A DNA stretch of 33,501 nt from Peptoniphilaceae bacterium (GTDB lineage: Bacteria; Bacillota; Clostridia; Tissierellales; Peptoniphilaceae), in contig JAQYEZ010000044.1 of the NCBI GenBank assembly GCA_028723425.1, forward strand, positions 32,001 through 65,501, written 5' to 3'. Position numbers and translations under genes: made by a program. Shown piece after piece: positions 3,645 through 29,784 of this stretch (positions are counted from its first letter, which is position 1; every line of letters begins with the position of its first letter). The notes beneath the pieces were generated by a model, which saw only the letters and a program-made list of their open reading frames with translations, did no database searches and was not told the origin of the DNA.

Positions 3645-3650
3645 GAAATG

Positions 3651-5104: not shown

Positions 5105-5179
5105 GAGCTTCTTTGCCTAGATTGTAGGCTTTAGGCGACTTTACAATTTAAAAATATAATTTAAAATTATTTATATCTA

Positions 5180-5208
5180 TTTAAACTTATGAGATGATAT
5201 GGTATAAT
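5180..5208 (+). promoter_or_regulatory. Promoter of the efp cluster (extended -10)
   Basis: TATAAT at 5203-5208 is preceded by TGG at 5200-5202, giving an extended -10 (TGnTATAAT). A weak -35 TTTAAA lies at 5180-5185 with 17-base spacing. The efp AGGAGG ribosome site follows at 5227-5232. It is the only good promoter seen before the 12-kb gene cluster. Confidence 0.8.
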
Positions 5209-5236
5209 AATGTAAAACAAAAACTTAGGAGGACTT

Positions 5237-5794: not shown

Positions 5795-5803
5795 GGAGAT
5801 ATA

Positions 5804-6124
5804 ATGAGCAATTCATTTAAAAATGGAAGTGTGAAAATAGCCAATGAAACTATTGAGTTTATAGCTAAAGAAGCTGCGGAAGAAATTAATGGTGTTTATG
5901 CATCTGAGGGAGGTTCTTTAAATAAAGAAAAACAAACACAAGCAAAATTAGTCTTTACAGAAAAAGGAATTGAAGTCAATTTATTTGTAGTTTTGTTTAA
6001 AAATGTAGAAGTCAGAAAAACTGTCAAAAAAATTCAAGAAAGAGTTAAGAAACAAATTGAAGTTATGACTGGTATAACAGTTAAAAGAGTAAATGTTTCT
6101 GTTGAGAAACTAATAATCTTATGA
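5804..6124 (+). CDS. Asp23/Gls24 family protein (YqhY-like)
   Basis: The 106-residue protein carries the compact Asp23/Gls24 domain, with IANETIEFIAKEAAEEINGV, the central VNLFVVLFKNVEVRK and the C-terminal VKRVNVSVEKL. The family includes Asp23, AmaP partners and B. subtilis YqhY. Position just before nusB matches YqhY, which in Bacillus is linked to control of acetyl-CoA carboxylase and lipid synthesis; that role is inference from synteny. An AAGGAG site precedes the ATG, and the 3' end overlaps nusB by 4 bases (ATGA). Confidence 0.88.
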   Translation: MSNSFKNGSVKIANETIEFIAKEAAEEINGVYASEGGSLNKEKQTQAKLVFTEKGIEVNLFVVLFKNVEVRKTVKKIQERVKKQIEVMTGITVKRVNVSVEKLIIL

Positions 6125-6510
6125 CTAGGGTGGAAGAAAGAGAATGGGTTTTTAAAATAATTTTTGGAAATCTCTTTGATAGCCAAATGGATTTACAGGA
6201 AATTTTTGATAATTATGGTTTAGATTTTAATAAGGATGGTTTCATTTACAAGTCCTTGTCTTCCTATTTAAATGAAAAAGAAATAATCAATCAAATACTT
6301 ATCGAAGAACTTGGTAAAAACTCATTTAATCGATTAAATAAAATAGATAAGTCAATCTTATCTTTGAGCATTAATGAAATTAAATTTTTGGCTATACCTG
6401 CTAGTGTTTCTATAAACGAAGCAGTTAATATCTCAAAAAAATATGCAGCACAAGATAGCTATAAATATATTAATAGTGTTTTAGGGTCTATAGTTAGAAA
6501 AGGTATGTAA
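6121..6510 (+). CDS. nusB: Transcription antitermination factor NusB
   Basis: NusB pairs with NusE (S10) and binds boxA RNA to prevent premature termination in rRNA operons. The protein has 129 residues, near the usual 130-145, and is all-helical. The C-terminal half is characteristic: NRLNKIDKSILSLSINEIKF, then IPASVSINEAVNISKKYA and YKYINSVLGSIVRK. The N-terminal half is divergent (TRVEEREWVFKIIFG replaces the usual RR.AREAALQ pattern). It starts at an ATGA overlap with the Asp23-like gene, and its stop overlaps the xseA start by one base. Confidence 0.93.
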   Translation: MTRVEEREWVFKIIFGNLFDSQMDLQEIFDNYGLDFNKDGFIYKSLSSYLNEKEIINQILIEELGKNSFNRLNKIDKSILSLSINEIKFLAIPASVSINEAVNISKKYAAQDSYKYINSVLGSIVRKGM

Positions 6511-7697
6511 TGAGAAAAGCTTTAAGCGTTAAGCAATTTAATGAATATATCAAGTCATCTTTAAAACATGACCCTATCTTTCAAAACCTCCATGTAAAAG
6601 GTCAGGTCGCAAATTACAGAATATCACATGAGCACCTATACTTTTCCTTAAAAGAGGGGGATGATATTATTGACTGTGTTATCTATTATTACATAGATAA
6701 AGATATCAATACATCCTTTGATACAGGGGATGAAATTGAAATATACGGAAATCTTCTTTTTAATAATTATTCATCAAGGCTTGTAATAAATATAACAAAA
6801 ATTGAGGAATTTGGAATATCAGAAGACTATAAGATTTTTATAAAATTAAGGGAAAATTTTCAAAAAAAAGGATATTTTGATTCTGATAAGAAAAAAGAAA
6901 TACCAAAACTTCCTAAAAACATCGGCCTCATTACTTCCAAGGATGGGGCAGCTGTTGAGGACTATCTTAATGTGATAAATCAAGTTCCAAACGATATCAC
7001 CGTTAGCTTTTATCCAGTAAAAGTTCAAGGCAAGAATTCAATTTATGAAATAATAAAGGCTTTAGATTACCTTGATAAGAAAAATTTAGATTTACTAGTA
7101 ATAACAAGGGGCGGCGGCTCAAAGGAAGATTTAAATGTTTTTAATAGTCCTGAAATTGTTGAAAAAGTGTTTTCTTTGAAAACTCCTTTAATATCAGCTA
7201 TAGGACATAAAATTGATCAGACTTTGATAGACTTGGTAGCAGATTTAAGTTTACAAACGCCCACAGAGGCAGCAAGCGTCACAGTAAGAAACTATTCATT
7301 TTTATTAAGAGATATAGATAATATCTATACTAAAATATTGAAGGCATATAGAGATAAGTTGTACTTATCTGATATAAAACTTTCTTTTTTGAAAAAAGAT
7401 TTATATAAATTTGATCCTAAAAATTTAGTAAAAAAAAGGATAGATGATTTAAATGAATTAAACAAATCCTTTGAAAAACAAATTTTAGATATGCTTAATA
7501 CTGAGAAAAATAAGCTTAATATCTTAGCTTATAGACTTAAATCAATTAAAAAAATGCTTGATATAGAAAAAAATAAGATACAAATTAAAGATATGGAAGG
7601 AAGGGAAATTTTCTCCAAGTTTTCACTTAAAAAAGGACAAGATATTAAAATTATCTTTAGTGATGGAGAAGTATTAGCGATAGTTAAAGATGAATGA
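6510..7697 (+). CDS. xseA: Exodeoxyribonuclease VII large subunit
   Basis: XseA is the catalytic subunit of exonuclease VII, which degrades single-stranded DNA to oligonucleotides in repair. The 395-residue protein has an N-terminal OB-fold (about 1-100, QVANYRISHEHLYFSLKE). The nuclease region is marked by IGLITSKDGAAVEDY, ITRGGGSKEDL and ADLSLQTPTEAA, followed by a long C-terminal coiled coil. The usual GHExD motif reads GHKID at 232-236, with Lys in place of Glu. It overlaps nusB by one base and xseB by 8, consistent with coupled production of the two subunits. Confidence 0.95.
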   Translation: MRKALSVKQFNEYIKSSLKHDPIFQNLHVKGQVANYRISHEHLYFSLKEGDDIIDCVIYYYIDKDINTSFDTGDEIEIYGNLLFNNYSSRLVINITKIEEFGISEDYKIFIKLRENFQKKGYFDSDKKKEIPKLPKNIGLITSKDGAAVEDYLNVINQVPNDITVSFYPVKVQGKNSIYEIIKALDYLDKKNLDLLVITRGGGSKEDLNVFNSPEIVEKVFSLKTPLISAIGHKIDQTLIDLVADLSLQTPTEAASVTVRNYSFLLRDIDNIYTKILKAYRDKLYLSDIKLSFLKKDLYKFDPKNLVKKRIDDLNELNKSFEKQILDMLNTEKNKLNILAYRLKSIKKMLDIEKNKIQIKDMEGREIFSKFSLKKGQDIKIIFSDGEVLAIVKDE

Positions 7698-7884
7698 AAC
7701 ATTTGAAGAGAATTACGAGAAGTTAAAAAAACTTTTAGAAGATTTAGAAAATACAAAAGATAATCTAGATCAATCTTTTAAAATATACTCTGAGGCCAAA
7801 GAATTGTATCAGAAATTAGAGAAGCAACTCGAGGACTACAAGGCTAAGGTTGATATAATAAGTGAGGAAAAATCAGTTGACTAA
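7690..7884 (+). CDS. xseB: Exodeoxyribonuclease VII small subunit
   Basis: XseB is the small helical subunit that binds the coiled coil of XseA in multiple copies. The 64-residue protein matches family length and pattern: NETFEENYEKLKKLLEDLE, then an LDQSFKIYSEAKELYQKLE helix. It begins 8 bases before the xseA stop and its own 3' end overlaps ispA, so it lies within a tightly coupled trio. Confidence 0.94.
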   Translation: MNETFEENYEKLKKLLEDLENTKDNLDQSFKIYSEAKELYQKLEKQLEDYKAKVDIISEEKSVD

Positions 7885-8710
7885 AGAAGATTTTTTAAAA
7901 CTTTTAGCAGATGATAAAAAAATAATTGACAAAAGAATAGAAGAATTTTTCTCCAAACAAGAAAATAGGCTTGATCAAGCTGTTTATTATGCTATTGATG
8001 GCGGCAAAAGAATAAGACCTATAGTTTTTTTGGAAACTATAAAGATGTTAAGAGGTCAAGATTTTAACTTAATAGATTTAGATCTTGCTATTTCTTTAGA
8101 GATGATACATGCTTATTCTTTGATACATGATGATATGCCTAGTATGGATAATGATGATTTTCGCAGAGGTAAAGAAACTGTTCATAAAAAATACGGAGAA
8201 AGTATTGCCCTTTTGGCAGGAGATTATCTACTAAATACAGCTTATGAAAATATATTTAAACAAGCTATTAATGATTTAAATATTGGAAAAGCTGGTTACT
8301 ATATGGCTAAATGTGCTGGAAAAAATGGCATGATAGATGGTCAATATTATGATATCTTTAAAAAAACATCTTATGATCTTTCTTATGTTTTAAAGGTCTA
8401 TGAGAAAAAAACTGCTGGTCTTTTTATGGCAGCTTTAGTAGCAGCTGGTTTATCTTTGGGAAAGGACTGTGATACTATTCTTAAACTAAAAACATACGGC
8501 AAGTATCTAGGCCTATCATTCCAATTACAAGATGATTTGTTAGAAACTGAAACTGAAGATGAGCTAAATATTTTAAATGTCATATCAAAAGATAAGGCTA
8601 AAGAATACTTAGCTAAGTTTAACCAAGAAGCTAAAGAAGCAGTTAAGAATTTTGATAAAAATGATTTTCATGTTTTTTTAATTGATTATTTGTCAACAAG
8701 AACTAATTAA
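7877..8710 (+). CDS. ispA: Polyprenyl (farnesyl/geranyl) diphosphate synthase
   Basis: This is a short-chain trans-prenyltransferase that condenses IPP with allylic diphosphates to make farnesyl diphosphate, precursor of undecaprenyl and quinone-type lipids. I place the start at TTG 7877, which has a GTGAGGA site about 8 bases upstream and gives 277 residues. A longer frame starts at GTG 7862 but its ribosome site is weak. Visible motifs are GGKRIRP, the first aspartate-rich motif HDDMPSMDNDD (DDxxxxD at 85-91) and a second at 219-223 reading DDLLE instead of DDxxD. The region after it is also divergent. The start overlaps xseB by 8 bases. dxs, often next in this cluster, is absent. Confidence 0.9.
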   Translation: MTKEDFLKLLADDKKIIDKRIEEFFSKQENRLDQAVYYAIDGGKRIRPIVFLETIKMLRGQDFNLIDLDLAISLEMIHAYSLIHDDMPSMDNDDFRRGKETVHKKYGESIALLAGDYLLNTAYENIFKQAINDLNIGKAGYYMAKCAGKNGMIDGQYYDIFKKTSYDLSYVLKVYEKKTAGLFMAALVAAGLSLGKDCDTILKLKTYGKYLGLSFQLQDDLLETETEDELNILNVISKDKAKEYLAKFNQEAKEAVKNFDKNDFHVFLIDYLSTRTN

Positions 8711-8719
8711 GAGGATTAT

Positions 8720-9172
8720 ATGAAAAAATACACTAGACAGAGATTAATATTAGATATTATTCAAAACAATGAAGTTAAGACTCAAAGTCAATTATCAGAA
8801 ATCCTTAGGGACCATGGGGTAGATGCAACCCAAGCTACTATTTCTAGGGATATAAAAGAATTAAGAATATCAAAAGTACAAACAGATGATTACGATTATA
8901 GATATACAGTTGTAGATACAGTTTATGATTCTTTAAATGAAAGAATGGAAAAAATATTTAAGGAGTCTGTTCTTTCTGTAGAAAAATACCATTCTTTGAT
9001 TGTAGTTAAAACTATAGCCTATACGGCAGCTGTTTGTGGTCAATTTATCACTAATGCTAAATTAGACAATATTGGTGGTATAGTCACAGGTCTTGACACA
9101 ATATTTATAACACCAATCAGATTAGAAGGAATTGAAGAAGTGGTTGAAGAGTTAAGGGATATGGTGAAATAG
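8720..9172 (+). CDS. argR: ArgR-family transcriptional regulator
   Basis: ArgR/AhrC proteins are hexameric regulators that bind ARG boxes with arginine as co-repressor. The 150-residue protein has the N-terminal winged helix-turn-helix (about 1-70; KTQSQLSEILRDHGV, then ATQATISRDIKELRI). The C-terminal hexamerisation/ligand domain covers about 80-150. The usual ligand residues are altered: the GDDT motif reads GLDT (124-127) and the T.PG.A segment reads TIAYTA (98-103). DNA binding looks intact while arginine sensing is doubtful. Location before recN is the standard Firmicute arrangement. A GAGG ribosome site precedes the ATG. Confidence 0.93.
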   Translation: MKKYTRQRLILDIIQNNEVKTQSQLSEILRDHGVDATQATISRDIKELRISKVQTDDYDYRYTVVDTVYDSLNERMEKIFKESVLSVEKYHSLIVVKTIAYTAAVCGQFITNAKLDNIGGIVTGLDTIFITPIRLEGIEEVVEELRDMVK

Positions 9173-15848: not shown

Positions 15849-17924
15849 ATGAAAGTAATTGTAGCAGAAAATTCAGGATTTTGTGGTGGAGTAAGAAGAT
15901 CTGTAGAGCTTGCAGAGAAAGCTATAGAAAATAATGATAAGGTCTATTGTCTTGGAGAAATTGTTCATAATCCTAGTCAAGTTAAAATTTTAGAAGAGAT
16001 GGGCATGGTCACAATAGATAAAGATGCTCTAGAAAGAATACATGATTCGACAGTTGTAATAAGAGCCCATGGTATAGATCAAAAAACAAAAGATCAAATA
16101 GTAAGAAATAATAACCAATTAATAGATGCTACTTGTCCAGTGCTCATAAATATATATAAAAAAATACAAGAAAAAGAAAAAGAAGGTTATAAGATAATAA
16201 TTGTTGGAGATAAGAACCATCCTGAGATAAAAGCTATGGCATCTTACATAAAAAATGGTATAATAATAGTAGATGAGTCTGAAGCAAAAAATATTACAAA
16301 TCAGTCAAAACTTTATGTTGTAAGTCAGACAACAAACAGAATTGATTTTTTTGAGAATATTGCTCATGAATTAGAGAAGAAAAATGATGATGTAGTAATA
16401 GAAAACACAATCTGCAAGGCTACAAAAATTAGACAAGACTCATGCCAAAGTCTATCTAAACAAGTGGATTGTATGGTTGTAGTTGGTGGTTTTAATAGTT
16501 CGAATACCAATAAGCTTTATCAAATAGCACAAAAGAATTGTAATAATGTTCTTAGAATTGAAACTGTTAAAGATCTACCTTTGCAAAAGCTCACTAATTT
16601 TAATATAATAGGGGTAATCGCTGGTGCGTCCACGCCAGATTTGGTTATCGAGGAGGTAGTAAGTAGGATGGAAGATTTAACAAACGAAGAATTTATGAAC
16701 AGCATTGAAGATAGTATGAAAAAGATTTATCCTAGAGATGTTGTTAAAGGAACTATTATTGATGTGAAAGATGATGAAGTTTTCGTTGATATTCAATACA
16801 GATTTGATGGTATTGTAAAACTTGATGAAATGACAGAAGAAGAAGCTTCAAATCCAAAAGAACATTTTAATGTAGGTGATGAAGTAGATGTTTATGTAAT
16901 TAAGTTGGACGATGGTGAAGGTAATGTTTCATTATCAACAAGAAGAGTTGAAGGTGTTAAAAACTGGAAAGTTCTTATAGAAAAATTTGAAAATGAAGAA
17001 AGTGTTGAAGGTGAAATTACAGGATTCAATAAAGGTGGTTTAACTGCAAAAGTTCTTGGAATCAATGGATTTATTCCTGCAAGCCACATAGCAACATATT
17101 TTGTTAAAAATTTCAAAAAATTTGTTGGTGAAACTTGGGAATTAAAAATCATCAGTATTGATGAAAGAAAAAATAGACTTGTTTTATCTAGAAAAGAAAT
17201 TCTTGAAAGCTTATTAGATGAACAATGGGAAGGGCTAGAAGAAGGTCAAGTTGTAACAGGTAAGGTTGCAAGATTAACTGACTTTGGAGCTTTCATTGAA
17301 ATCGGTAATCTAGATGGTTTACTTCACGTTTCAGATATTTCATGGAACAGAGTTGAACATCCTTCTGATGTTTTAAATGTTGGAGATGAAATTGAAGTAA
17401 AAATCCTTAAACTAAACAAAGAAAGAAATAGAATCTCTCTTGGAAGAAAGCAACTTTTAGATAAGCCATTTGATAGCTTTACAAAAGAACACGCTGTTGG
17501 AGATGTTGTTAAGGGTAAAGTTGTTAACCTATTAGACTTTGGTGCTTTTGTTGAAGTAAGCCAAGGGGTAGAAGGCTTGGTTCACGTTTCTGAAATTTCT
17601 TGGGAGCATGTAGAAAAACCATCTGATGAACTCAATGTTGGCGATGAAATTGATGTTAAGATTATTTCTATCGACAAAGATGAAGAGAAAATTGGTTTAA
17701 GTATTAAAGCTTTAACTGAACAACCAGAAAGACCAGAAAGAAAAGTAAGAAAACAAAATAATGATGAATCTAGAAAAGCTAATAGAGCTAATAGAAAAGC
17801 TGAAAGAAAAGCTAAGGATGATTCATTCGGAGATGAAGATCTAAATAATAATATAGGATTTGCTATAGAAGAAATGTTATCTGGTATTAAAATCGAAGAT
17901 GACGATGATTCAAGCGAAGAATAA
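15849..17924 (+). CDS. ispH: IspH (HMBPP reductase) fused to ribosomal protein S1
   Basis: The 691-residue protein joins two functions. Residues 1 to about 280 are IspH, the [4Fe-4S] reductase that makes IPP and DMAPP in the last MEP-pathway step. Cluster ligands Cys12 (GFCGG), Cys96 (DATCPV) and Cys189 (NTICKAT) and the expected histidines His40 and His74 are present. Residues about 297-640 hold four S1 OB domains starting near 297, 384, 466 and 552; the last two carry the classic DFGAF/HVS.ISW pattern. A charged tail follows. Such fusions are known in clostridia, so this is a genuine fusion rather than a frame error. S1 has a role in mRNA binding at initiation. A terminator follows. Confidence 0.96.
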   Translation: MKVIVAENSGFCGGVRRSVELAEKAIENNDKVYCLGEIVHNPSQVKILEEMGMVTIDKDALERIHDSTVVIRAHGIDQKTKDQIVRNNNQLIDATCPVLINIYKKIQEKEKEGYKIIIVGDKNHPEIKAMASYIKNGIIIVDESEAKNITNQSKLYVVSQTTNRIDFFENIAHELEKKNDDVVIENTICKATKIRQDSCQSLSKQVDCMVVVGGFNSSNTNKLYQIAQKNCNNVLRIETVKDLPLQKLTNFNIIGVIAGASTPDLVIEEVVSRMEDLTNEEFMNSIEDSMKKIYPRDVVKGTIIDVKDDEVFVDIQYRFDGIVKLDEMTEEEASNPKEHFNVGDEVDVYVIKLDDGEGNVSLSTRRVEGVKNWKVLIEKFENEESVEGEITGFNKGGLTAKVLGINGFIPASHIATYFVKNFKKFVGETWELKIISIDERKNRLVLSRKEILESLLDEQWEGLEEGQVVTGKVARLTDFGAFIEIGNLDGLLHVSDISWNRVEHPSDVLNVGDEIEVKILKLNKERNRISLGRKQLLDKPFDSFTKEHAVGDVVKGKVVNLLDFGAFVEVSQGVEGLVHVSEISWEHVEKPSDELNVGDEIDVKIISIDKDEEKIGLSIKALTEQPERPERKVRKQNNDESRKANRANRKAERKAKDDSFGDEDLNNNIGFAIEEMLSGIKIEDDDDSSEE

Positions 17925-19479: not shown

Positions 19480-20454
19480 ATGAAAGCTTATGTTGTAAAA
19501 GCTAGAGCTAAACTTGGGAATTTGCCTAATCTAATAAATTATAAAAATTTAATAGGTGAACAAGATTTATATAGAAAATTTGATAAGGTCAAACAACTGC
19601 ATCCATCTTTGCAAAAGATTAAAGATATAGATCAGGTTGAACATGAATTAGATTTTGAAATTAGTAGAAATATCAAATCTTTATCATATTTTCTAAATGG
19701 TTATGAAGAAGAATTTTTTGAAAAGTATGTTTCTGCATTTGAGATAAGGCTTATTCAAAATGTCATTCAAGGCATATTGAATAAGTCTTTAAACAATAGT
19801 TTATACTTATTTACAAATAATCCATTTTCTAAGAATCTTGTTATTAAAAAAGATATGAAATTTGAAGATTTCGTGGCTAGTTTAAAAAACACTCGATATC
19901 ATAGAACTTTAGTACCGTTTTTAAATGAAAATATGTCAAAAGATTCTATGATTTTTTTAATTTCAAATTCTTTGACAAAATTTTATTTTAGAGATTTATT
20001 AGACTATTCTTCCAAATTTCCAAAAGATTTAGCCAAAAAAATACGAATATTTATAGGTAAGGAGATAGACTTATATAATATCGAGATGCTATATAGATTA
20101 ATTTCATATTTTGACCTACCAGCCTATGAAATTTTTAACTATCTGATAGAAGGTGGTTACAAGTTAAAGGCTTATAAGTTAAAGAAATTATCAAATATGA
20201 CCATTGATAAATTCAAAAAGGAGATGAAAGAAACTCCTTATGGTCATATTTTTTCTGGAATTTTCGATATTAATAAGGCTCTTATGGAAGAAAAACATAA
20301 AATTTACAAAGATTTAAGTAAAGAAGATAATGTTTTATATTTGATTTATGCAGTAAATTTATTAGTAATTTCAAATAATAATATTATATCAATCCTAAAT
20401 ATGGACGATAGCTTTACTAAGGAAGAACAAGAAAGTTTAATTGTAACGGGGTAA
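19480..20454 (+). CDS. ntpC: V/A-type ATPase subunit C (AC39 family)
   Basis: Subunit C links the central rotor shaft to the membrane ring. The 324-residue helical protein begins AYVVKARAKLGNL, matching the AC39/NtpC N-terminus. It continues with long helical repeats such as EFFEKYVSAFEIRLIQNVIQG (helix with the EI.xIKxIIRG-type pattern) and ends in a helical LYLIYAVNLLVISNNNI. Length is near the family norm (about 330-350). It is the first gene of the operon here, whereas I or G usually comes first in other bacteria. The following gene starts 4 bases after its stop. Confidence 0.88.
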   Translation: MKAYVVKARAKLGNLPNLINYKNLIGEQDLYRKFDKVKQLHPSLQKIKDIDQVEHELDFEISRNIKSLSYFLNGYEEEFFEKYVSAFEIRLIQNVIQGILNKSLNNSLYLFTNNPFSKNLVIKKDMKFEDFVASLKNTRYHRTLVPFLNENMSKDSMIFLISNSLTKFYFRDLLDYSSKFPKDLAKKIRIFIGKEIDLYNIEMLYRLISYFDLPAYEIFNYLIEGGYKLKAYKLKKLSNMTIDKFKKEMKETPYGHIFSGIFDINKALMEEKHKIYKDLSKEDNVLYLIYAVNLLVISNNNIISILNMDDSFTKEEQESLIVTG

Positions 20455-20458
20455 TATT

Positions 20459-21331
20459 ATGGCAGTTGAAAAAATGAGACTTGTAAATATTATGGGTCGA
20501 CTCAAATATATAGATGATTTCTTGGAAGATGTCATAAAAATTGACGAGCTTGATCAGGTCGGAGCTTTAACGGAAATTCAAAATAGGGATTTTTCAATTA
20601 AAGCAACCGAGGAAAACATTGATAGAATTGAAGATTTTAACGATATTGAATCTTTTTTAGATAACGACCAAGAAATTATAGACAAGTTAGAAGATATTAA
20701 AGAAAATTTTGCTATTGCTGATAAAAAAGAAGGCCATAGAATAAGCACAGATGAAATAGATAAGATGTATTCTAAGCTTTCAGACCTAATAGCAAAGAAA
20801 AAAGAATTAGAAGAGCAAAAAGAAGAACTTGAAACATATGTCAAAAATTATGAAATCTTAAATAGAGAATCAATTGACATAGACAAGATTCAAAAGCTTA
20901 AATATTTTTCCTATAGGTTTGGTGAAATAAGTAAGGAAGGTAGATTTATCCTAAAGAATAATTACGAAAATATTCCTTCTACTATTATTCACTTAAACAA
21001 CAGTGAAATAGCTGCAAATGCCTATAAGGAATATATCGATGAGATTATATCTATAGACGAATCTACTGTAGAGCTTAGAGAACAAACAGATAAAATTCTT
21101 GCAAATGAAAAAGAAAATGTTAATAATGTATCTGTTCATATGGAAAAAGAATTTTATAAGTCAACGAAAGATAGAGCTCAAGAACTTTATGATTCAATTA
21201 TTTCAGAGGTAGATCAAGAAGTTAAGGATATAGAAAATCAATATAAGGATGAAAGTAAAAAGACTAAGGAAATATTTGATGCTAACAAAGATAAATTAGT
21301 GAAAAAATTCCTAAGAAAGATTACAAAGTAA
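20459..21331 (+). CDS. V/A-type ATPase subunit I N-terminal part fused to a G/H-like stalk helix
   Basis: Residues 1 to about 183 of this 290-residue protein match the start of subunit I: the opening AVEKMRLVNIMGRLKYID, the coiled-coil hairpin around 100-135 and the strand region LKYFSYRFGEISKEG through NIPSTIIHLNNSE. Canonical subunit I would then continue into the strand with (V/I)YP/FTP. Here it instead enters a charged helix (about 200-290, ESTVELREQTDKILANEKENV to DKLVKKFLRKITK) resembling the peripheral-stalk subunit G/H. There are no membrane segments. The rest of subunit I is in the next gene. The frame is continuous and the DNA shows no break. The G/H likeness is judged by eye. Confidence 0.75.
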   Translation: MAVEKMRLVNIMGRLKYIDDFLEDVIKIDELDQVGALTEIQNRDFSIKATEENIDRIEDFNDIESFLDNDQEIIDKLEDIKENFAIADKKEGHRISTDEIDKMYSKLSDLIAKKKELEEQKEELETYVKNYEILNRESIDIDKIQKLKYFSYRFGEISKEGRFILKNNYENIPSTIIHLNNSEIAANAYKEYIDEIISIDESTVELREQTDKILANEKENVNNVSVHMEKEFYKSTKDRAQELYDSIISEVDQEVKDIENQYKDESKKTKEIFDANKDKLVKKFLRKITK

Positions 21332-21347
21332 GAGAAAGGAGGAAAGA

Positions 21348-22781
21348 TTGAAGTTTTTAGAAAAACTTGGTTTTAAGGTAGGTAATGGCAAAAAAACTAA
21401 GAAAAATGAGATTAATGAAAGCTTCGGTAATGAAAATTATATTTTAATTTATCCAAAATCAGTTGAAGATGAAGTTAATCGTTCTGTAAACTCTATGGGC
21501 TTTATTGATAAAGAAATACCAAAGGACCTATCCTATGATAGTTTGGTAGAAAAACTAAATGAAACCGAGAGAGAGCTTAAAGTCTTAGACCAAGATCTCG
21601 AAAAAATTAAAGAAAAGAATAAAGAAGCCTTGGACAATGTTTCATATACCTTAGATTATTATAAAAAATCTTCAAAACTAAAGGATAAGATGGTAAAAGG
21701 AGAAAAATATTTCTACTTATCATCATGGGTTCCTGAAACAAAAATTGAGCAAGTAAGAAAGCTTGCAAATAAATATGAGGATACTTTAGTTTTGGAAAAA
21801 AAAGATCATGAGGTAGGACTGGTACCTCCAACCAAACTTAATAATAACAAACTTGTAAAGCCCTTCGAATTTCTAGTAAATATGTATGGCGCTCCAAATT
21901 ATAACGAAATAGATCCAACTGGATTTTTTGCACTTACCTATTTGCTTTTATATGGAATGATGTTTGGAGATTTAGGGCAAGGCTTAATTTTTGTTATTTT
22001 AAGCTATTTTATAGGCAAAAAGAATGAAGTGTTTGGTAGCTTAATAAGAAGAATAGGAATATCAGCTTCCATATTTGGTCTCTTATATGGATCAGTATTT
22101 GGTATAGAAACTTTAATACCAACACTATTAATTAAGCCATTTGATAATATAATGACTGTCTTAATAGCGGCAGTAGGATTTGGTATAATTCTTTTAATTA
22201 CATCTTATTGTTTGGGAATTTATAACAAATTAGTAAAACAAAAAGATTTGGAAGAAGGATTTTTTGGCAAAGAAGGCTTTGCTGGTCTTTTGATGATGAT
22301 TTCTTTTGTATTTATTATTTTAAATTTGGTAGGCAAAAAAATTGTTGGTATGCCAATAGCAATAGGACTTTTAGTTATTTCTATTATTATGATGGTATTT
22401 AAAGAACCACTTTCTAATAGCTTATTAAGAAATTATCCACTTTACAGCACTAAAAAGAGCGATTATTATGTAGAAAGTTCCTTTTCTATCATAGAAGCCT
22501 TGTTATCAGTTTTCTCTAACCTAGTTTCATTTACCAGAGTTGGGGCCTTTGCTATAAACCACGTTGGCTTATATATGGCCTTTGAAGTAATTAGTAAACT
22601 TGTTGGGGGAGGATTTGTTGGTCTAATAATTTTGATTTTAGGAAATATTTTGATTATTGGACTTGAAGGAATGATAGTCTTCATTCAAGGATTGAGACTA
22701 GAGTTTTATGAAATGTTTAGTAAATATTATAAGGGCGATGGCTATAAATTTAGCCCAATCAGCCAAATAAATGAAAAATAA
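21348..22781 (+). CDS. ntpI: V/A-type ATPase subunit I, C-terminal membrane part
   Basis: The 477-residue protein starts at TTG 21348, with AAAGGAGG 5 bases upstream. After a 29-residue basic leader it resumes subunit I at NYILIYPKSVEDEVNRS. A coiled coil (about 65-95) and the distal-lobe WVPE motif (127-130) follow, then seven or eight membrane helices from about 190. FGDLGQGLIF and SFTRVGAFAINHVGL are present; Arg397 in the latter corresponds to the essential arginine facing the c-ring carboxylate. The end LEFYEMFSKYYKGDGYKF.P is typical. Together with residues 1-183 of the previous gene it adds up to about 630 residues, the size of one ordinary subunit I. Confidence 0.88.
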   Translation: MKFLEKLGFKVGNGKKTKKNEINESFGNENYILIYPKSVEDEVNRSVNSMGFIDKEIPKDLSYDSLVEKLNETERELKVLDQDLEKIKEKNKEALDNVSYTLDYYKKSSKLKDKMVKGEKYFYLSSWVPETKIEQVRKLANKYEDTLVLEKKDHEVGLVPPTKLNNNKLVKPFEFLVNMYGAPNYNEIDPTGFFALTYLLLYGMMFGDLGQGLIFVILSYFIGKKNEVFGSLIRRIGISASIFGLLYGSVFGIETLIPTLLIKPFDNIMTVLIAAVGFGIILLITSYCLGIYNKLVKQKDLEEGFFGKEGFAGLLMMISFVFIILNLVGKKIVGMPIAIGLLVISIIMMVFKEPLSNSLLRNYPLYSTKKSDYYVESSFSIIEALLSVFSNLVSFTRVGAFAINHVGLYMAFEVISKLVGGGFVGLIILILGNILIIGLEGMIVFIQGLRLEFYEMFSKYYKGDGYKFSPISQINEK

Positions 22782-22793
22782 GGAGTTTAAATA

Positions 22794-23237
22794 ATGATAT
22801 TATATATAGCTTTACTAGCTTTAGCAGTAGTAACAATTACAATTTATTCAGGTTTATACCTATTAAAAAACAATGAAGATTCATCAAAAGCAAAAATTAA
22901 AAAAGCCTTAAAAATTAATTTATCTACCTTTTTACCTTTAATGATTATGATTATTGTATTAATCTTACCTTTCTCTTCAAAGGCAGCATCTACTGATGCA
23001 GCTGGTATGATGGCTACAAGTGCTGGTGCAGATGGGCTAAAATTCATAGGCGCAGCTTTATCAACAGGACTTGCAACAATTGGTACAGGTTATGCGGTAG
23101 GTACAGTAGGTTCTGCAGCTCTTGGTGCTATTTCAGAAGATGCATCTATCTTAGGTAGAACTATAATCTTCGTAGGACTTGCAGAAGGTATTGCTATCTT
23201 TGGTGTAATTATTTCTATCTTAATCCTTTACGCATAA
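22794..23237 (+). CDS. ntpK: V/A-type ATPase subunit K (c-ring proteolipid)
   Basis: This 147-residue membrane protein forms the rotor ring. The C-terminal half is a single c-type hairpin: a glycine-rich helix from about 82 (ALSTGLATIGTGYAVGTVGSAALGA), the polar loop ISEDASILGR, and a second helix with FVGLAEGIAIFG, where Glu131 is the predicted ion carrier. Residues 1-65 add two further hydrophobic helices (about 3-24 and 46-62) that lack c-subunit motifs, ending in a signal-like FSSKAAS. Similar extended forms occur in some bacteria. Ion specificity (H+ or Na+) cannot be settled here. Confidence 0.92.
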   Translation: MILYIALLALAVVTITIYSGLYLLKNNEDSSKAKIKKALKINLSTFLPLMIMIIVLILPFSSKAASTDAAGMMATSAGADGLKFIGAALSTGLATIGTGYAVGTVGSAALGAISEDASILGRTIIFVGLAEGIAIFGVIISILILYA

Positions 23238-23238
23238 A

Positions 23239-23475
23239 ATGAAAGCAAAAATCATTACAGATAATAACAGTTTGCTACTTGGATTCAGACTGGGCGGCAT
23301 AACAGGAGAGTTAATTACTGATAAGACTTTGCTTGCTGAAACCTTCTATAAATTCTCAAAAGAAAAGGATCTAGCCTTGATTATTTTTACCAAGTCTTCC
23401 TATAATCCTATTAGTGAGCTTGTAGAAGATTTCAGAGAACATCATACTACTCCACTTATAGTAGTATTAGATTGA
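23239..23475 (+). CDS. ntpF: V/A-type ATPase subunit F, short form
   Basis: Subunit F sits on the central shaft next to D. The 78-residue protein has the family fold: strand KAKIITDNNSLLLGFRLGGITG, the helix around AETFYKFSKEKD, strand LALIIFTKS and a final PLIVVLD strand. Usual members have about 100 residues and continue with a C-terminal helix that reaches into the A3B3 head; that segment is missing. A GGAGG for the next gene begins 4 bases after the stop, so the short end looks genuine. The symbol follows subunit letter F, not the E. hirae naming, where NtpF means another subunit. Confidence 0.82.
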   Translation: MKAKIITDNNSLLLGFRLGGITGELITDKTLLAETFYKFSKEKDLALIIFTKSSYNPISELVEDFREHHTTPLIVVLD

Positions 23476-23487
23476 AATGGAGGACTT

Positions 23488-24099
23488 ATGATAGATATTA
23501 GTTCTAAACTCTCAAGCTTTAGAAGATTAGTTTGGGATGTTGAGAAAAAAAAGAGCGAAAAACAACTCTATGATTCTATTAATATATCAACGGATATTAT
23601 TGAAAATAAAAAATCTGAACTAGAAAAATATATGAAAACTTATCTAGAAAAGAGAAAAGTTTTTGCCACTACAAGAAAAAATGAAATTGTTGCTAGAAAA
23701 ACTGAAGAAGAAAAATCAACCTACAATTTATATAAGGAAGAACTTTTAAAAACAACTATAGATGAAATTAAAAAAGAACTTTTGGCCTATAGTAAAACTA
23801 GTGAGTATAAGACAAAATTGAAAGAAGAAGTCGAAGAAACATTTAATAAATTAAAGAAAAATTCAGACCAAGCTTACATCCTTCTGGTAAAAGAAGAAGA
23901 TTTAAATCTTTTTGAAAAATATGATACAGAAATAATGAGTGATGCTAATCTAGGTGGTTTTATAATAGAGGATACAAACAAAACTTACCAATACGACTAC
24001 ACTTTAAAAAGAAAGCTAGATAATGAAAAATACGAAATAGGTAAAAAACTATATTCTCTAATGGAAGGCGGTGACTTAAACAATGACACCAACAATTAA
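23488..24099 (+). CDS. ntpE: V/A-type ATPase subunit E (peripheral stalk)
   Basis: Subunit E is the long helical half of the EG peripheral stalk that holds the catalytic head. The 203-residue protein is charged and helical over the first 110 residues. The C-terminal globular part includes ANLGGFIIEDTNKTYQYDYTLKRKLD, matching the GGvvl....g.i.v.nTle.rl pattern of the family. A GGAGG lies 6 bases before the ATG. Its 3' end overlaps the A gene by 17 bases. The normal partner G has no separate gene in this operon. Confidence 0.85.
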   Translation: MIDISSKLSSFRRLVWDVEKKKSEKQLYDSINISTDIIENKKSELEKYMKTYLEKRKVFATTRKNEIVARKTEEEKSTYNLYKEELLKTTIDEIKKELLAYSKTSEYKTKLKEEVEETFNKLKKNSDQAYILLVKEEDLNLFEKYDTEIMSDANLGGFIIEDTNKTYQYDYTLKRKLDNEKYEIGKKLYSLMEGGDLNNDTNN

Positions 24100-25837
24100 A
24101 GTAATTAATGGACCTGTAGTTACAGCTAGAAATGCTAGCGGCCTAAAAATTAGAGAAATGGTTACAGTAGGTAGTTTAAAATTAATAGGAGAGGTAGTTT
24201 CTATCGAAAAAGACTTGGCTACTATACAAGTTTATGAAGATACAGCAGGTCTAAAAGTAGGAGAAGAGATAGAAACTACAGGAAGAGCTTTGTCTGTAAA
24301 GCTTGGACCAGGTATGGTTGGAAATATGTTCGATGGTATCCAAAGGCCTCTAAATCTGATAAAGCAAGAAAATGGATCTTTCATACCTTCTGGAGTAGGG
24401 CTTAAAAGCTTGGATGATGAAAAAATCTGGCAAGTCAATATTAAGGTAAAAGAAGGGGACAAGTTAAAATTTGGGGATATCTATGCTACTATAAAAGAAA
24501 CCGAAACCATAGAGCATAAGCTTCTTTCTAATCTTGAAGGCCAAGTTGTTTCTGTTAAAGAATCTGGAAACTATAGACTTGAAGATACTATAGTAAAAGT
24601 AAAAACTGAACAAGGAGAAGAAGATTTAAAACTTTATCAATATTGGCCTGTTAGAAATCCTAGACCAGTAAAGAAAAATTTACCTTTATCAGAAGTTTTA
24701 GTTACTGGACAAAGAGTACTTGATATTTTCTTTCCAATAGCTAAGGGAGGTACTGTAGCTATCCCTGGAGGATTTGGTACTGGTAAAACTATGCTCCAAC
24801 ACCAACTTGCTCAATACGCTGATGCAGATATTATCGTTTATATTGGCTGTGGAGAACGTGGCAATGAGATGACTCAAGTATTGGAAGATTTCCCTAACCT
24901 TATAGATCCTAATACAGGAAGAGGTCTAATGGAAAGAACAATACTTATAGCAAATACTTCAAATATGCCTGTAGCAGCAAGAGAAGCCTCAATTTATACT
25001 GGTATAACAATAGCAGAATATTTTAGAGATATGGGATATGATGTTGCCTTAATGGCAGATTCTTCATCACGTTGGGCAGAAGCTCTAAGAGAAATCTCAG
25101 CAAGGCTTGAAGAAATACCAGCAGAAGAAGGCTATCCAGCATATTTAGGATCAAGACTTTCTCAATTCTATGAAAGAGCAGGATCTGTAGAAAACCTAAA
25201 TGGGACAAAAGGCTCTGTAACTTTGATTGGAGCTGTAAGTCCTACAGGTGGTGATTTTTCAGAACCTGTTACAGAAAACACCAGAAGATGTGTAAATGTA
25301 TTTTTGGGACTTGATAAGAACTTGGCATACTCAAGACATTATCCAGCTATAAACTGGTTATCCTCATATTCAAATTACTTAAATCAAATGAGAGATTTCT
25401 ATGAAGATTTGACAGGTGAAGATGTAATTTCTTTGAGAAATGAAATGATGGAAATATTAACTGAAGAAGAAAAACTTCAATCCATAGTAATGCTAGTAGG
25501 TAGAGATGCTCTTTCTGCCTCACAAAAAAATGTTATGGATACAGCAAGCTTACTTAGAGTTGGTTATTTACAACAAAATGCCTTTAATGATGTAGATAAA
25601 TATGTACCCCTTGAAAAACAAATACAAATGTTAAAACTAATAAAACATTACTATACTAGATCAAAAGAAGCTATAGACAAGGGTATATACTACGATAAAG
25701 TATACAATCCAAATTTAATCGCAGAGCTAACCAACATTAAATATAATATAGAAAATGACCAATTAGACAAATTTGTAGACATAAACACAAAAATTGATTC
25801 TTATTTCCAAAGCATTGAAGAGGGTGAAAATATATGA
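24083..25837 (+). CDS. ntpA: V/A-type ATPase catalytic subunit A
   Basis: Subunit A hydrolyses or makes ATP in the A3B3 head. The 584-residue protein starts with the beta-barrel ([23 protein letters not shown]). It contains the non-homologous bulge region after GLKSL, then Walker A GGFGTGKT at 229-236, followed by [13 protein letters not shown] and [19 protein letters not shown]. All catalytic motifs, including the Glu of GERGNE, are present. Length is normal. The start overlaps E by 17 bases, and the end overlaps B by 4 (ATGA), as expected for subunits made in fixed ratio. Confidence 0.98.
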
Positions 25838-27213
25838 AAAAACAATATACAAAAATTAAAAAAATTGAATCTTCAATCATAGAATTAGAGAGAGTTGTTG
25901 ATGTAGCCTATAAAGCTGTTGTAGAAATTCATGCTTTAAATATGGATTTTATAGGTCAAGTAGTAAAAATAGATGATGATACAATAACTGTAGAAGTATT
26001 TGCCGATACACAAGACTTCTCCTTAAATGACATTGTGGTTAGATTTGAAGAAAAGCCACTTGAAATTCCTTTATCAGAAAAAATCCTAGGTAGAACTTTT
26101 AATGGTATAGCAAGACCAATAGATGGTGGTGGGGAAATCTATAGTGACAATTTCTATACTGTAGAAGGTCAACCTTTAAACCCTGTATCAAGACTTTATC
26201 CAAGAGACTTCATACAAACAGGCATTTCTGCCATAGATTCACTAACAACTCTAATTCGTGGGCAAAAATTACCTATATTTTCTGGATCTGGTCTACCACA
26301 CAATGAAATAGCTGCCCAAATAGTTAGACAAGCCAAGTTAAAAACCAATGAAGATTTCTGCTTTGTATTCGCAGCTATGGGAATCAAAAAAGATGAAGCC
26401 ATGTTCTTTGATGATGCTTTCAAAAAAGCTGGTGTAAAAAATAAAGTAGTTATGTATGAAAATTTGGCAGATGATCCTATTATGGAAAGGATAATTACCC
26501 CAAAATGTGCCCTAACAGCAGCAGAATACCTTGCTTTTGAAAGACATAAGCATGTTTTGGTAATAATAACTGATATGACTTCCTATGCCGAAGCTTTAAG
26601 GGAAGTTTCTTCAATCAGACAAGAAGTTCCATCTCGTAAAGGCTATCCAGGATATCTATATTCTGATCTTGCAAGTTTATATGAAAGAGCTGGCATGATA
26701 GAAGGTGTAAAAGGCTCTGTAACGCTGATACCAATATTAACTATGCCAAATGATGACATAACCCATCCTGTTCCTGATCTTACAGGTTATATTACAGAAG
26801 GACAAATAGTAATAGATAGAAATCTTTATCAAAAAGGTGTATATCCACCTATCAATGTATTGCCATCTCTATCAAGGCTTATGAAAGATGGTATTGGTGA
26901 AGGCTATACAAGAGCTGACCATGAAGATTTGATGAACCAACTATATGAATCCTATTCTAAAGTACAAGATGTTAGAAGTATTTCTCAAATTGTTGGAGAA
27001 GATGACCTTTCAGATGTAGATAAAAAATACTTGGAATTTGGAAAAGTATTTGAAGAAAAGTTTTTATCTCAAGATCAATACGAAAATAGGGAGTTAGAAA
27101 AAACCCTGGATATGGGCTGGGATATTTTAAAAATTCTTCCAATTACAGAAATTCACAGAGTTTCAAATGAAAATAAGACTAAGTATTTAGGGGAAAATTA
27201 TGGCACAAATTAA
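25834..27213 (+). CDS. ntpB: V/A-type ATPase regulatory subunit B
   Basis: Subunit B alternates with A in the head and binds nucleotide without catalysis. The 459-residue protein has a degenerate P-loop [17 protein letters not shown], as expected for B. It also has [14 protein letters not shown] near the N-terminus, [22 protein letters not shown] and [18 protein letters not shown]. Length matches the family. It starts at an ATGA overlap with A and its end overlaps D by 14 bases. Confidence 0.98.
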
Positions 27214-27829
27214 GCTACCTGCAACCAAGGCTAATCTAATAAAAGCTCAAGATCAATTGGGCCTTATGAATCAAGGCTATGATATACTTGATAAAAAAAG
27301 AAAAGCGTTGTTGCAACAATATAACCTAAAAATAGATGAAAGAAACAAGGTTAACGAAGAAGTAAACAAAACTATAAAATCTGTTTATAAGGTTATAAAA
27401 AAAGCCATTATTTCAGTTGGAGAAGAAAGCTTAAAAGAAGTAGCAGGATCTATTCCAGAAGATGACTCTCTAAGTCTTGAACAAATAAGTTTTATGCAAA
27501 CAACCCTATACAAAATTAGCATGAAAGAAAAAAAACTTAGCCTTTCTTACTCATTCTATTCTACAAATGTATTATTTGACCAAGCCCTCATAGCCTTAAA
27601 TGACTTAAAGAAAAAAGTTTACAGGTTAGCAGAACTTGATACAACAATAAATAACTTGAATAAGGAAATGAAAAAAACCTCTAAGAAAGTAAACTCTTTA
27701 GATAAGGTACAAATTCCAAAATACAACGATTTAATCAAAGAAATTTCTTCTCAAATAGAAGAAAGAGAAAGAGAAGAGTTTTCAAAAACAAAGATGGTCA
27801 AGGATAGAAAGCTAAAAGAAGAAAATTAA
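27200..27829 (+). CDS. ntpD: V/A-type ATPase subunit D (central shaft)
   Basis: Subunit D is the rotating coiled-coil axle inside the A3B3 head, functionally like F-ATPase gamma. The 209-residue protein opens with the conserved [32 protein letters not shown]. It closes with a second long helix containing RRVNSLDKV-like [22 protein letters not shown] and a charged tail [18 protein letters not shown]. Length is normal. It is the last gene before a strong terminator. Confidence 0.95.
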
Positions 27830-27908
27830 AAAGTTAGATGTAATAGCTTGTGTCAAAAATTTGAACTCTTCAATAAAGCATATTCGTTAACCACTATTAA
27901 CAATCTTA

Positions 27909-27947
27909 TTTATCTGGTATAGAAATTTCTATACTAGATAAATTTTT
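27909..27947 (+). terminator. Terminator of the V-ATPase operon
   Basis: TTTATCTG plus GTATAGAA at 27909-27924 pair with the complement at 27927-27942 to give about 16 bp, including one GU, closed by a tiny loop and followed by TTTTT. The hairpin core GTATAGAAATTTCTATAC is perfectly self-complementary. The remaining 27830-28077 bases hold no supported gene. Confidence 0.92.
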
Positions 27948-28620: not shown

Positions 28621-28680
28621 AGAAAAGTATTAATGTTTTAATAAACATAGGCGATGAAGAAATTAATAGAGAGGGAAAAA

Positions 28681-29784
28681 ATGAATAACAAACTAAAAGT
28701 AACAGGATTAGCATTAGCTTTATCACTTACATTTGCAGCATGCTCAAATAATAAAGATAAAAAAGAAAATGCTAGTTCTACATCAAGCGTAGAAACAAAC
28801 GCAAGCACAGATCAAAAAGTATTGGCACCTACAAGTGTGGAAAAGGGATCAGCTGAAAAAGTAGAAATGTCTGATGCGCTTCTACATAGATCTTATCAAA
28901 CTCCACACGGAGATAAATCTATTGCTAGAGTAGTTGTCTTAACTTCTGGAGATAAGATTGTAGATGTATCTTTAGATGAAATGCAATATTTTGATAAAGA
29001 TTCTGACTTTGTAGGCTTACCAAGCTCAGATGGAGCATTTGGAAAAGGTGCAGCAGAGGGTAAAATCCTAGGTTCAAAAGTTGAAAATAGCGATGCATAT
29101 TCTAAAAATATGGCAGAAAAAGCTGGTTCAAAAGTTAGCTTAGCTGACAATTACAAAGCAATAATTGACTTTGCAAAGGGTAAAACAATCTCTGAACTCG
29201 AAGATGTTTTAGCAAATGCCAATGAAGATGGAACAATTGACGGAGTTACAGGAGCAACACTTGCTGATACAGCTAATTATATCAAAGCTATAGTTGCTAC
29301 AGCCAAAGATGATAAAATGGTTTCACCTGTTAAAGCAAAAGACATTAACAAAGTAAGCTTATACCAAAAATACGGTGCTCCTCATGGAGATCAATCCTTT
29401 GCTGATGTTGTTGTAGCTGTTGAAGATGGAGTTATAGTTGCTGCAAATATTGATGAATTACAATATTTTGGTGAAAATGGTATCGCTAAAGAAGGCACAG
29501 GATTCACAGAAGGTTATGCTGACCAAAAGAATCAATTAGCATCAAAACTAATGTCAAATGAAGAATATTCTAAACTTATGGCAGAAAAAGCTGGTTCAAA
29601 ACATAGCCTAGCTGATAACTATAAGGCTATTGAAAACTTTGCTGTTGGTAAAACTACTGATGAAATTCAATCAGTAATTGACGAAAGTGAAAAAGGAAAA
29701 CCAGTAGATGCTGTTTCTGAAGCTACTTTAGTAGATACAGCTAACTACCTACAATTAATTGTAGATGCAGTAAAAGAAAAATAA
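28681..29784 (+). CDS. Lipoprotein with two FMN-binding-like repeats (PplA/Cad-like)
   Basis: From ATG 28681 (GAGAGGG upstream; an in-frame ATG at 28654 lacks a spaced site) the protein has 367 residues. It has a lipoprotein signal peptide with Cys21 in LTFAAC and a Ser/Asn/Lys linker. Two tandem repeats of about 145-150 residues follow (about 64-215 and 221-367). Both contain PHGD, LDEMQYF/IDELQYF, MAEKAGSK and SLADNYKAI. Repeat 1 ends in DGVTGAT (187-193), fitting the ApbE flavinylation motif Dxx(S/T)GAT. Repeat 2 has DAVSEAT (343-349), with Gly replaced by Glu. This layout resembles Listeria PplA and enterococcal Cad, extracellular flavoproteins of electron transfer. The role is inferred; no apbE or ndh2 is in the window. 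Confidence 0.82.
   Translation: MNNKLKVTGLALALSLTFAACSNNKDKKENASSTSSVETNASTDQKVLAPTSVEKGSAEKVEMSDALLHRSYQTPHGDKSIARVVVLTSGDKIVDVSLDEMQYFDKDSDFVGLPSSDGAFGKGAAEGKILGSKVENSDAYSKNMAEKAGSKVSLADNYKAIIDFAKGKTISELEDVLANANEDGTIDGVTGATLADTANYIKAIVATAKDDKMVSPVKAKDINKVSLYQKYGAPHGDQSFADVVVAVEDGVIVAANIDELQYFGENGIAKEGTGFTEGYADQKNQLASKLMSNEEYSKLMAEKAGSKHSLADNYKAIENFAVGKTTDEIQSVIDESEKGKPVDAVSEATLVDTANYLQLIVDAVKEK

What the first reader, a model, noticed from the sequence alone, without database searches (positions are those of the whole stretch)
20459..22781. Subunit I of the V-ATPase is split, with a G/H-like stalk helix apparently fused to its first half
Canonical subunit I runs without a break from the strand ending NIPSTIIHLNNSE to the strand starting NYILIYPKSVEDEV. 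Here those two pieces lie in different genes: residue 183 of the first protein and residue 30 of the second. Between them are about 105 residues of charged helix resembling subunit G/H, a stop codon, a strong AAAGGAGG with a TTG start, and a 29-residue basic leader. Removing these inserts leaves about 630 residues, one normal subunit I. No separate G gene exists in the operon. In known A/V-ATPases the EG stalk docks on the soluble lobe of subunit I, so a physical I-G fusion at this lobe makes mechanical sense. I know of no described enzyme built this way.
Basis: partly seen in the sequence, partly recalled or inferred. Interest (0 to 1): 0.82.

Follow-up and report, generated by a model that had tools for sequence, protein, structure and literature searches.

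The report
Ion-pump arm split, stalk fused on
In the bacterium Anaerococcus, one large part of a rotary ion pump is encoded as two separate genes, and the first ends in a stretch related to the pump's normally separate stalk protein, so that anchoring arm and stalk are likely one continuous piece, an arrangement for which our literature searches listed no description.

Summary
In this V-ATPase operon subunit I is encoded as two proteins: IN-G (290 aa; residues 1-183 are the first half of the arm) and IC (477 aa; the second half plus the membrane part). Residues 184-290 of IN-G are the stalk subunit G/H: a profile made only from separate G genes of other genera finds them as best match in 31 of 31 Anaerococcus genomes searched whole (E 3e-18 here), and profile-profile comparison links those G genes to the G/H family (hhalign 90.6%; 14 controls at most 6.5%). 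49 related genomes have a separate counterpart of the tail. The fusion is in 31 of 31 Anaerococcus genomes and 2 of 2 of one neighbouring genus, under purifying selection. The cut lies, by extrapolation, in the lobe that holds a stalk in Thermus. Two extensions: 10 of 33 such operons encode two tandem copies of IC's soluble half, and one distant relative has an independent fusion of a soluble arm with G. A separate G gene exists elsewhere in this genome, inside a complete second V-ATPase operon. Docking, stoichiometry and function are untested; modelling of both chains together was unavailable.

The parts
19480..20454 (+). V/A-ATPase subunit C (324 aa), first gene of the operon; in nine outgroup operons the separate G gene lies just before it
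   Evidence: PF01992 104.6 bits; order in relatives
20459..21007 (+). IN-G residues 1-183: N-terminal half of the soluble arm of subunit I
   Evidence: profile of this part matches the N-terminal part of intact subunit I in 9 of 9 outgroup operons, E 2e-35 to 1e-20
21008..21331 (+). IN-G residues 184-290 plus stop: fused stalk subunit G/H
   Evidence: predicted as one helix 183-289, ten-residue block pLDDT 59 at its start, then 76-92
21335..21342 (+). AAAGGAGG ribosome-binding site of IC, 5 nt before the TTG start
   Evidence: sequence; scored
21348..21428 (+). basic leader of IC, 27 residues
   Evidence: M(K/N)xLE(K/R)(L/F)GFK-type start shared by L047, L048, L049, L059, L062, L072, L073, L074; related in L102
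21429..21803 (+). IC residues 28-152: second half of the soluble arm (return strand, helix, proximal strand); this unit is duplicated in 10 of 33 operons
   Evidence: lobe profile; lines up with intact subunit I from ~190 on
21804..22781 (+). IC residues 153-477 plus stop: membrane part of subunit I
   Evidence: PF01496 91.7 bits for the whole protein; two arginines in this part invariant in 29 of 29 rows of A3 (their functional role is recalled)
22794..23237 (+). subunit K (rotor ring)
   Evidence: PF00137
23239..23475 (+). subunit F
   Evidence: PF01990
23488..24099 (+). subunit E, inferred partner of the fused G helix
   Evidence: NF003049 E 4.6e-4, far below its cut-off; position in operon; BLASTP to E of relatives
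24083..25837 (+). subunit A
   Evidence: PF00006 261.6 bits, PF16886, PF22919
25834..27213 (+). subunit B
   Evidence: PF00006 260.4 bits, PF22919
27200..27829 (+). subunit D, last gene
   Evidence: PF01813 133.2 bits

Best explanation
Subunit I of this V/A-type rotary ATPase is encoded as two chains, IN-G and IC, and the C-terminal 107 residues of IN-G are homologous to the peripheral-stalk subunit G/H, so the two chains likely reassemble into one soluble arm from which the stalk helix grows without a joint. Shown: the split, the homology of each piece, absence of another G gene of this type, conservation through the genus, purifying selection. Inferred: IN (1-183) pairs with the soluble half of IC to rebuild the two-lobed arm; the chain leaves the distal lobe, where the N-terminal end of a stalk sits in Thermus, runs up as the G helix paired with subunit E, and reaches the catalytic head, which makes the arm-stalk contact covalent. 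Translation as two proteins, with IC started at its own site, is inferred from the start sites. A further inference: where IC carries two copies of its soluble half, two IN-G chains can each complete an arm, which would fit the two stalks per enzyme known in Thermus.
For: Separate-G profile has the tail as best whole-genome match in 31 of 31 genus genomes, E 3e-18 in this one. Reverse direction: tail profile finds a separate 102-116-aa ORF next to C in 9 of 9 outgroup operons, E 5e-15 to 2e-8. Profile-profile link to G/H with controls. Fused in 33 of 130 family genomes, among them 31 of 31 of the genus; 49 of the 57 others with a match show a separate tail-type match. Fused genomes form one clade with FastTree support 1.000; G065, in the clade, is broken by a contig edge there. 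dN/dS of the tail 0.05-0.28 in 7 of 8 pairs (the eighth saturated), of the head 0.04-0.18 in 8 of 8. The insert falls at one point of the alignment in 7 of 7 read-through rows. Thermus: stator a1E2G2, two globular arm subdomains bind the two stalks, N-terminal region of the stalk bound to the distal one (PMC7367684, passages seen).
Against: The window tail alone reaches no G/H model, and TIGR02926 and PF16999 did not find it in the genome. The G of the second operon also stays below those cut-offs, and 0 of 196 class genomes exceed TIGR02926's. The AlphaFold model has pTM 0.30 and pLDDT under 50 for most of residues 1-68, and the structure search found only generic helices. If two G are needed per enzyme, the window's single-lobed IC leaves a second IN unpaired. 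Three of 31 genus genomes have frame breaks in IN-G or IC.
Confidence: 0.82

Rival explanations
1. The tail is an unrelated charged helix, and the stalk of this enzyme uses the G subunit of the second V-ATPase operon (contig C3).
For: A separate G (107 aa, TIGR02926 E 3e-6) exists on C3; the window tail alone hits no G/H model; long helices give weak matches easily.
Against: hhalign 99.2 to separate G genes with controls at most 6.5; separate-G profile gives the tail as the only match at E<=0.01 in this genome; the C3 operon has its own nine ORFs and its G matches the tail profile only at E 0.061.
Confidence: 0.05
2. IN-G and IC are made as one polypeptide by stop read-through or frameshift, so that G is an insertion within a continuous subunit I.
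For: In several genomes the two genes are in one frame, separated by a single stop codon directly followed by a start codon.
Against: The relation of the frames differs between species: IC ORF offsets of -44, -17, 0, 3, 5, 9, 11, 12, 14, 15, 16, 17 and 102 (145 in the frame-broken L047) cover all three frames. 30 of 33 have at least 4 nt of Shine-Dalgarno sequence before a listed IC start, which is weak, but 10 of 33 have 7-8 nt, the window among them. The stop is TAA, TAG or TGA by species.
Confidence: 0.05
3. The genes are decaying remnants, and the second V-ATPase does the work.
For: Each of the 31 genus genomes has 4 or 5 PF01496 matches, in this one from two loci; three have frame breaks (L047, L062, L073).
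Against: Unbroken in 28 of 31; dN/dS well below 1 for head and tail; the other operon genes are present.
Confidence: 0.03
4. IN-G is a free second arm rather than half of the only arm, comparable with the soluble-only subunit I of L094-L096, and does not pair with IC.
For: Soluble-only subunit I genes occur next to an intact one in an order-mate family.
Against: In Anaerococcus IC itself lacks the N-terminal half, so no complete arm would exist without IN; the split is exact.
Confidence: 0.05

Closest known systems
Thermus thermophilus V/A-ATPase (subunits I and EG stalks)
   Same: Same subunit set; two-lobed soluble arm that carries the stalks; N-terminal end of a stalk on the distal lobe (PMC7367684 passages; PMC5758568 passages)
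   Different: There I is one chain and G a separate protein; a1E2G2
Enterococcus hirae Na+ V-ATPase subunit I (8wci_P)
   Same: Full-length homolog of the intact subunit I of relatives, E 4e-53
   Different: I continuous (672 aa); a separate G subunit (recalled); dual peripheral stalks (PMC10382590, passages)
Peptoniphilaceae and other order-mate operons with order G-C-I-K(-F)-E-A-B-D
   Same: Orthologous operon and subunits
   Different: G separate, before C; I continuous, 641-663 aa
Mycobacterial b-delta fusion of F-ATP synthase (recalled; PMC11672644 seen only as a search listing)
   Same: A peripheral-stalk part fused to a neighbouring stator part
   Different: F-type; joins the stalk at the head end, not at the membrane-anchored arm, and splits no subunit (recalled)

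Membership tests
V/A-type rotary ATPase | Operon with A, B, C, D, E, F, K and I | tested here: met
   E only weakly by model (E 4.6e-4) but by position and BLASTP
Subunit I (a) | PF01496 membrane part and soluble arm present in full | tested here: met
   IC PF01496 91.7 bits; IN and IC together cover intact subunit I without gap
Subunit I (a) | One continuous chain, as in the relatives | tested here: not met
   separate ORFs in 31 of 31 genomes of the genus; this is the variant
Peripheral-stalk subunit G/H | Profile homology to G/H | tested here: met
   hhalign tail to separate G 99.2; separate G to AhaH type 90.6; tail to AhaH type 77.9; 14 controls at most 6.5
Peripheral-stalk subunit G/H | Match above curated TIGR02926 or PF16999 cut-off | tested here: inconclusive
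   not reached, but the G of the second operon also misses both, and 0 of 196 class genomes exceed TIGR02926's
Peripheral-stalk subunit G/H | About 100-residue continuous helix | tested here: met
   helix 183-289 predicted, 10 of its 11 ten-residue blocks at pLDDT 76-92
Peripheral-stalk subunit G/H | Coiled coil with subunit E | not testable with these tools
   no complex prediction offered
Peripheral-stalk subunit G/H | Fold match to solved EG stalks | tested here: inconclusive

The most novel reading that the evidence does not exclude
A rotary ATPase with a modular covalent stator: each IN-G chain is half an arm plus a stalk, and the number of IC half-arms (one, two, in two records three plus a partial one) sets how many covalently built-in stalks the enzyme carries. 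The arm-stalk fusion arose at least twice: in the Anaerococcus clade at the distal lobe, and in the order-mate genome G220 (L097) as a soluble arm fused to G at its proximal end.
Probability: 0.35. Interest if true: 0.87.

Novelty: new variant of a known kind. Interest (0 to 1): 0.74.

Why it matters
Peripheral stalks hold the head of a rotary ATPase still against torque, and how stiff the arm-stalk joint must be is a live question. Here evolution has likely removed that joint by fusing the stalk to the arm. Related species with one, two or three half-arms, and relatives with a separate G, form a natural series for testing stator stiffness, stalk number and coupling. Where one search shows a source's name for the 290-aa protein it is mostly 'hypothetical protein' (two entries say 'ATP synthase subunit I'), so by annotation the enzyme looks as if it lacked half of subunit I and all of G.

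Tried and rejected
Single-sequence scans of the tail against Pfam and NCBIfam: no G/H match. Profile search of solved structures with the separate-G alignment: apolipoprotein and other helices first; eukaryotic V-ATPase G co-linear (13-97 to 20-100) but E 2.5 to 3.7. With the IN-G alignment: nothing meaningful. With the N-terminal half of intact subunit I: no hit at 1e-5, so the position of the cut in Thermus numbering is extrapolated (profile 229 aligned to Thermus 214; profile 167-355 to 160-354 of 3rrk). Structure comparison of the IN-G model: generic long helices only; no V-ATPase stalk or arm among the 50 rows shown. Rfam and tRNA scans: one tRNA-Lys, unrelated. Promoter scan: 47 found, 45.6 expected; terminator-like sites 8 against 3.4, one just after D at 27908-27943. 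Read-through, frameshift, decay and assembly error were considered and set aside (see rivals).

Rows dropped before counts: one search used 31 of 32 IN sequences (the frame-broken L047 left out). The AhaH-type set used 28 of 30 fetched loci (L135 and L139 gave no fitting ORF) plus the C3 G, which was also its seed. One search kept lobes over 100 residues at E<1e-5 (71 pieces). In one search one of eight tail pairs had saturated dS. Searches list the best 120 of 484 and of 176 hits; of the 120, 117 have two lobes, 2 three and 1 one, but the query was two-lobed, so this is no prevalence. Searches list only part of their matches; searches list 20 of 59 and 20 of 43 papers.

Full report
WHAT IS THERE. 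The window holds an operon C - IN-G - IC - K - F - E - A - B - D (19480-27829). IN-G (20459-21331, 290 aa) and IC (21348-22781, 477 aa) are both complete ORFs; IC starts with TTG five bases after AAGGAGG. By library models IC is subunit I (PF01496 91.7 bits) and IN-G reaches no cut-off. The genome is an unnamed member of the genus Anaerococcus: the source names shown for the nearest proteins, and all but one of the 26 named records that encode a relative, carry that name; the exception is a Tissierellia MAG.

THE SPLIT. I took 30 further same-genus genomes and ten from other genera of the family, one of them (L085, g17) with the same fusion. A profile of IN-G residues 1-183, made from 31 genomes of the clade, hits the N-terminal part (to residue 179-187, 203 in L080) of a continuous subunit I (641-658 aa) in 9 of 9 outgroup operons at E 2e-35 to 1e-20. 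A profile of IC residues 28-152 hits the same proteins from residue 188-207 to 312-333. In an alignment of seven read-through pairs with 22 intact subunit I sequences the surplus falls at one point, between the strand ...NIPSLILHL and the strand ...ENYLLVYP. So the two proteins together are one subunit I, with nothing missing.

THE TAIL IS SUBUNIT G. In the outgroups the tail profile hits one separate ORF of 102-116 aa immediately before C, end to end, in 9 of 9 (E 5e-15 to 2e-8); the next-best ORF is the G of the second operon in the window's own genome, at E 0.061. The reverse test uses no fused sequence: a profile of the nine separate ORFs, run over whole genomes, has the IN-G tail as best match in 31 of 31 Anaerococcus genomes, E 3e-18 in the window's own and 1.7e-5 in the weakest, the frame-broken G010, which gives two readings of the same locus; the only other matches at E<=0.01 are six frames of 432-459 aa at E 4e-4 to 6e-3. 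So no free G of this type was found. hhalign: 31 tails against 26 separate G, probability 99.2, E 8e-20, 104 columns; the 26 against 29 AhaH-type G/H sequences (loci taken with TIGR02926, extracted), 90.6, E 1.3e-6, 104 columns, co-linear; tail against AhaH type 77.9 over 63 columns. Fourteen control comparisons (reversed alignments; tail or separate G with subunits E, D and C; tail with head; AhaH type with E, D and reversed E) gave 0.1 to 6.5 (E-values are for one pair). Results against: curated G/H models do not reach the tail on its own, but at cut-off they also miss the G of the second operon, and TIGR02926 exceeds its cut-off in 0 of 196 class genomes.

DISTRIBUTION. Of 130 family genomes searched with the IN-G alignment, 90 match. 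In 33 (31 of 31 of the genus, 2 of 2 of genus g17) one match spans residues 1 to 288-290, with frame breaks in G010. In 49 of the other 57 there is a separate tail-type match besides, or (G058) instead of, the head match in an intact subunit I; of the remaining 8, G065 is cut by a contig edge. Over 249 order genomes the top-scoring matches, all fused, are the same 33. An A+B FastTree of 48 loci puts the fused genomes, with G065, in one clade with support 1.000, which suggests one origin. dN/dS (NG86) is 0.04-0.18 for the head in eight pairs and 0.05-0.28 for the tail in the seven pairs that could be computed; dS exceeds 1.5 in some. Three of 31 genus genomes have frame breaks: L047 in both genes, L062 and L073 in IC. 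In L073 the IC break lies at a run of nine A, so an error of sequencing or a real phase change are both possible; the others were not examined at base level.

TWO PROTEINS, NOT ONE. Leaving aside the frame-broken L047, the IC ORF begins -44 to +102 bases from the IN-G stop, in all three relative frames, so no single read-through or frameshift rule fits. 30 of 33 have at least 4 nt of Shine-Dalgarno sequence before a listed start (10 of 33 have 7-8 nt); the exceptions are L061, L069 and L071. Where the stop is directly followed by the start, translational coupling is the likely mode (inference).

HOW IT LIKELY WORKS. In Thermus the stator is a1E2G2; the arm has two globular subdomains, joined by a coiled coil, which bind the proximal and distal stalks; the N-terminal region of a stalk sits on the distal subdomain, and its C-terminal globular domain on the head (PMC7367684, passages seen; PMC5758568, passages seen). 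The cut in Anaerococcus corresponds to about residue 170-180 of Thermus I by extrapolation, between the coiled-coil kinks at 119 and 246 named in that paper, that is in the distal subdomain. The fused order, lobe then N-terminus of G, is the one that geometry asks for. I therefore infer that IN and the soluble half of IC rebuild the arm and that the G helix leaves the distal lobe without a joint, paired with E. AlphaFold gives residues 183-289 as one helix, mostly at pLDDT 76-92, but the half-arm alone is poorly modelled (pTM 0.30), and the structure comparison finds only generic helices. No complex was modelled.

STOICHIOMETRY, AND A STRIKING EXTENSION. If two G are needed, two IN-G chains meet one IC. 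In 9 of 31 genus genomes and in L085 of g17, IC carries two tandem copies of its soluble half; the other g17 genome, L102, has one. In the nine, both ends of the unit (distal strand and proximal strand) are still recognisable in both copies, copy 1 being the less conserved (18 of 38 positions kept against 26), and both copies have dN/dS below 0.4 in four pairs. Two database proteins (P0188, P0189) carry three copies and a partial one. The lobe tree groups the two copies of the Anaerococcus subclade together (SH-aLRT 86.8, UFBoot 96), within the genus and apart from those of L085, so duplication likely followed the split and happened more than once. Two half-arms would let two IN-G chains each complete an arm. 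The window itself has one copy, so the place of a second IN-G there, or its absence, is open.

AN INDEPENDENT FUSION. In order-mate family f18, L094-L096 carry, between C and the intact subunit I, a 344-aa soluble-only subunit I. In G220 (L097) a 468-aa soluble arm ends in a G-like tail. For: 39.2 bits with the profile of 26 separate G (which includes that genome's own free G) against 0.8 for the reversed tail; 16.2 against -4.0 bits with the nine-sequence profile, which does not include it; hhalign with the 26, 93.8 against 0.7; and as query it finds the separate G of all four genomes of its genus at E 4e-12 to 2e-10. Against: hhalign of this single tail with the Anaerococcus tails gives 2.5 and with the AhaH type 1.2. 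That genome keeps a free G and an intact I as well, and is 1 of 4 in its genus. Its gene order (G, arm-G, C, I) and that of Anaerococcus (C, IN-G, IC) would both follow from tandem duplication of G-C-I with a deletion from inside the first I to the second G (inference).

LITERATURE. Ten searches of the open library (one search failed on a term) listed no paper that, by its title or the start of its abstract, describes a split subunit I or an I-G fusion; two searches returned none, and 55 and 56 were capped lists. I saw passages, not whole texts, of PMC7367684, PMC5758568, PMC6131620, PMC5709465 and PMC10382590. Subscription journals are mostly not in this library.

VERDICT. It is a new variant of a known machine. 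Assembly, copy number and mechanical effect remain predictions.

Noticed in passing
L005 (contig C3 of the same genome), 405-8860: A complete second V-ATPase operon with intact subunit I (658 aa) and its own 107-aa G; order G-I-K-E-C-F-A-B-D. Its K carries a motif that I recall from the E. hirae Na+ enzyme.
   Followed up: partly
L053, L056, L057, L058, L061, L067, L068, L069, L071 (same genus), L085 (g17); P0188 and P0189: IC with two tandem copies of its soluble half; three copies plus a partial one in the two database proteins.
   Followed up: partly
L097:3278-4684; L094:4464-5498; L095:4203-5237; L096:6405-7439: Soluble-only subunit I genes next to, or near, an intact one in another family; the one in L097 is fused to a G-like tail.
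   Followed up: partly
window 21348-21428: The IC leader begins M(K/N)xLE(K/R)(L/F)GFK in the window and eight relatives, similar in L102, not seen in the other subclades' leaders; function unknown.
   Followed up: no
L047, L062, L073: Frame breaks in IN-G or IC; in L073 the IC break is at a run of nine A.
   Followed up: partly
window 22794-23237: Subunit K: the c-ring match covers residues 85-144 only and is preceded by about 80 residues with further hydrophobic stretches.
   Followed up: no
window 15849-17924: 691-aa protein: LytB/IspH (PF02401, residues 3-275) joined to four S1 RNA-binding domains (PF00575), a combination I recall from other Firmicutes.
   Followed up: partly
window 28654-29784: 376-aa lipoprotein-like ORF with two internal repeats (each with PHGD and a C-terminal DTANYxxxIV stretch); no Pfam match at 1e-5.
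   Followed up: partly
L113 (G058), 2352-4175: Divergent subunit I locus: the head profile finds no match and the tm profile matches a 346-aa frame after a frame change near 3150; a tail-type G ORF lies at 962-1288.
   Followed up: no
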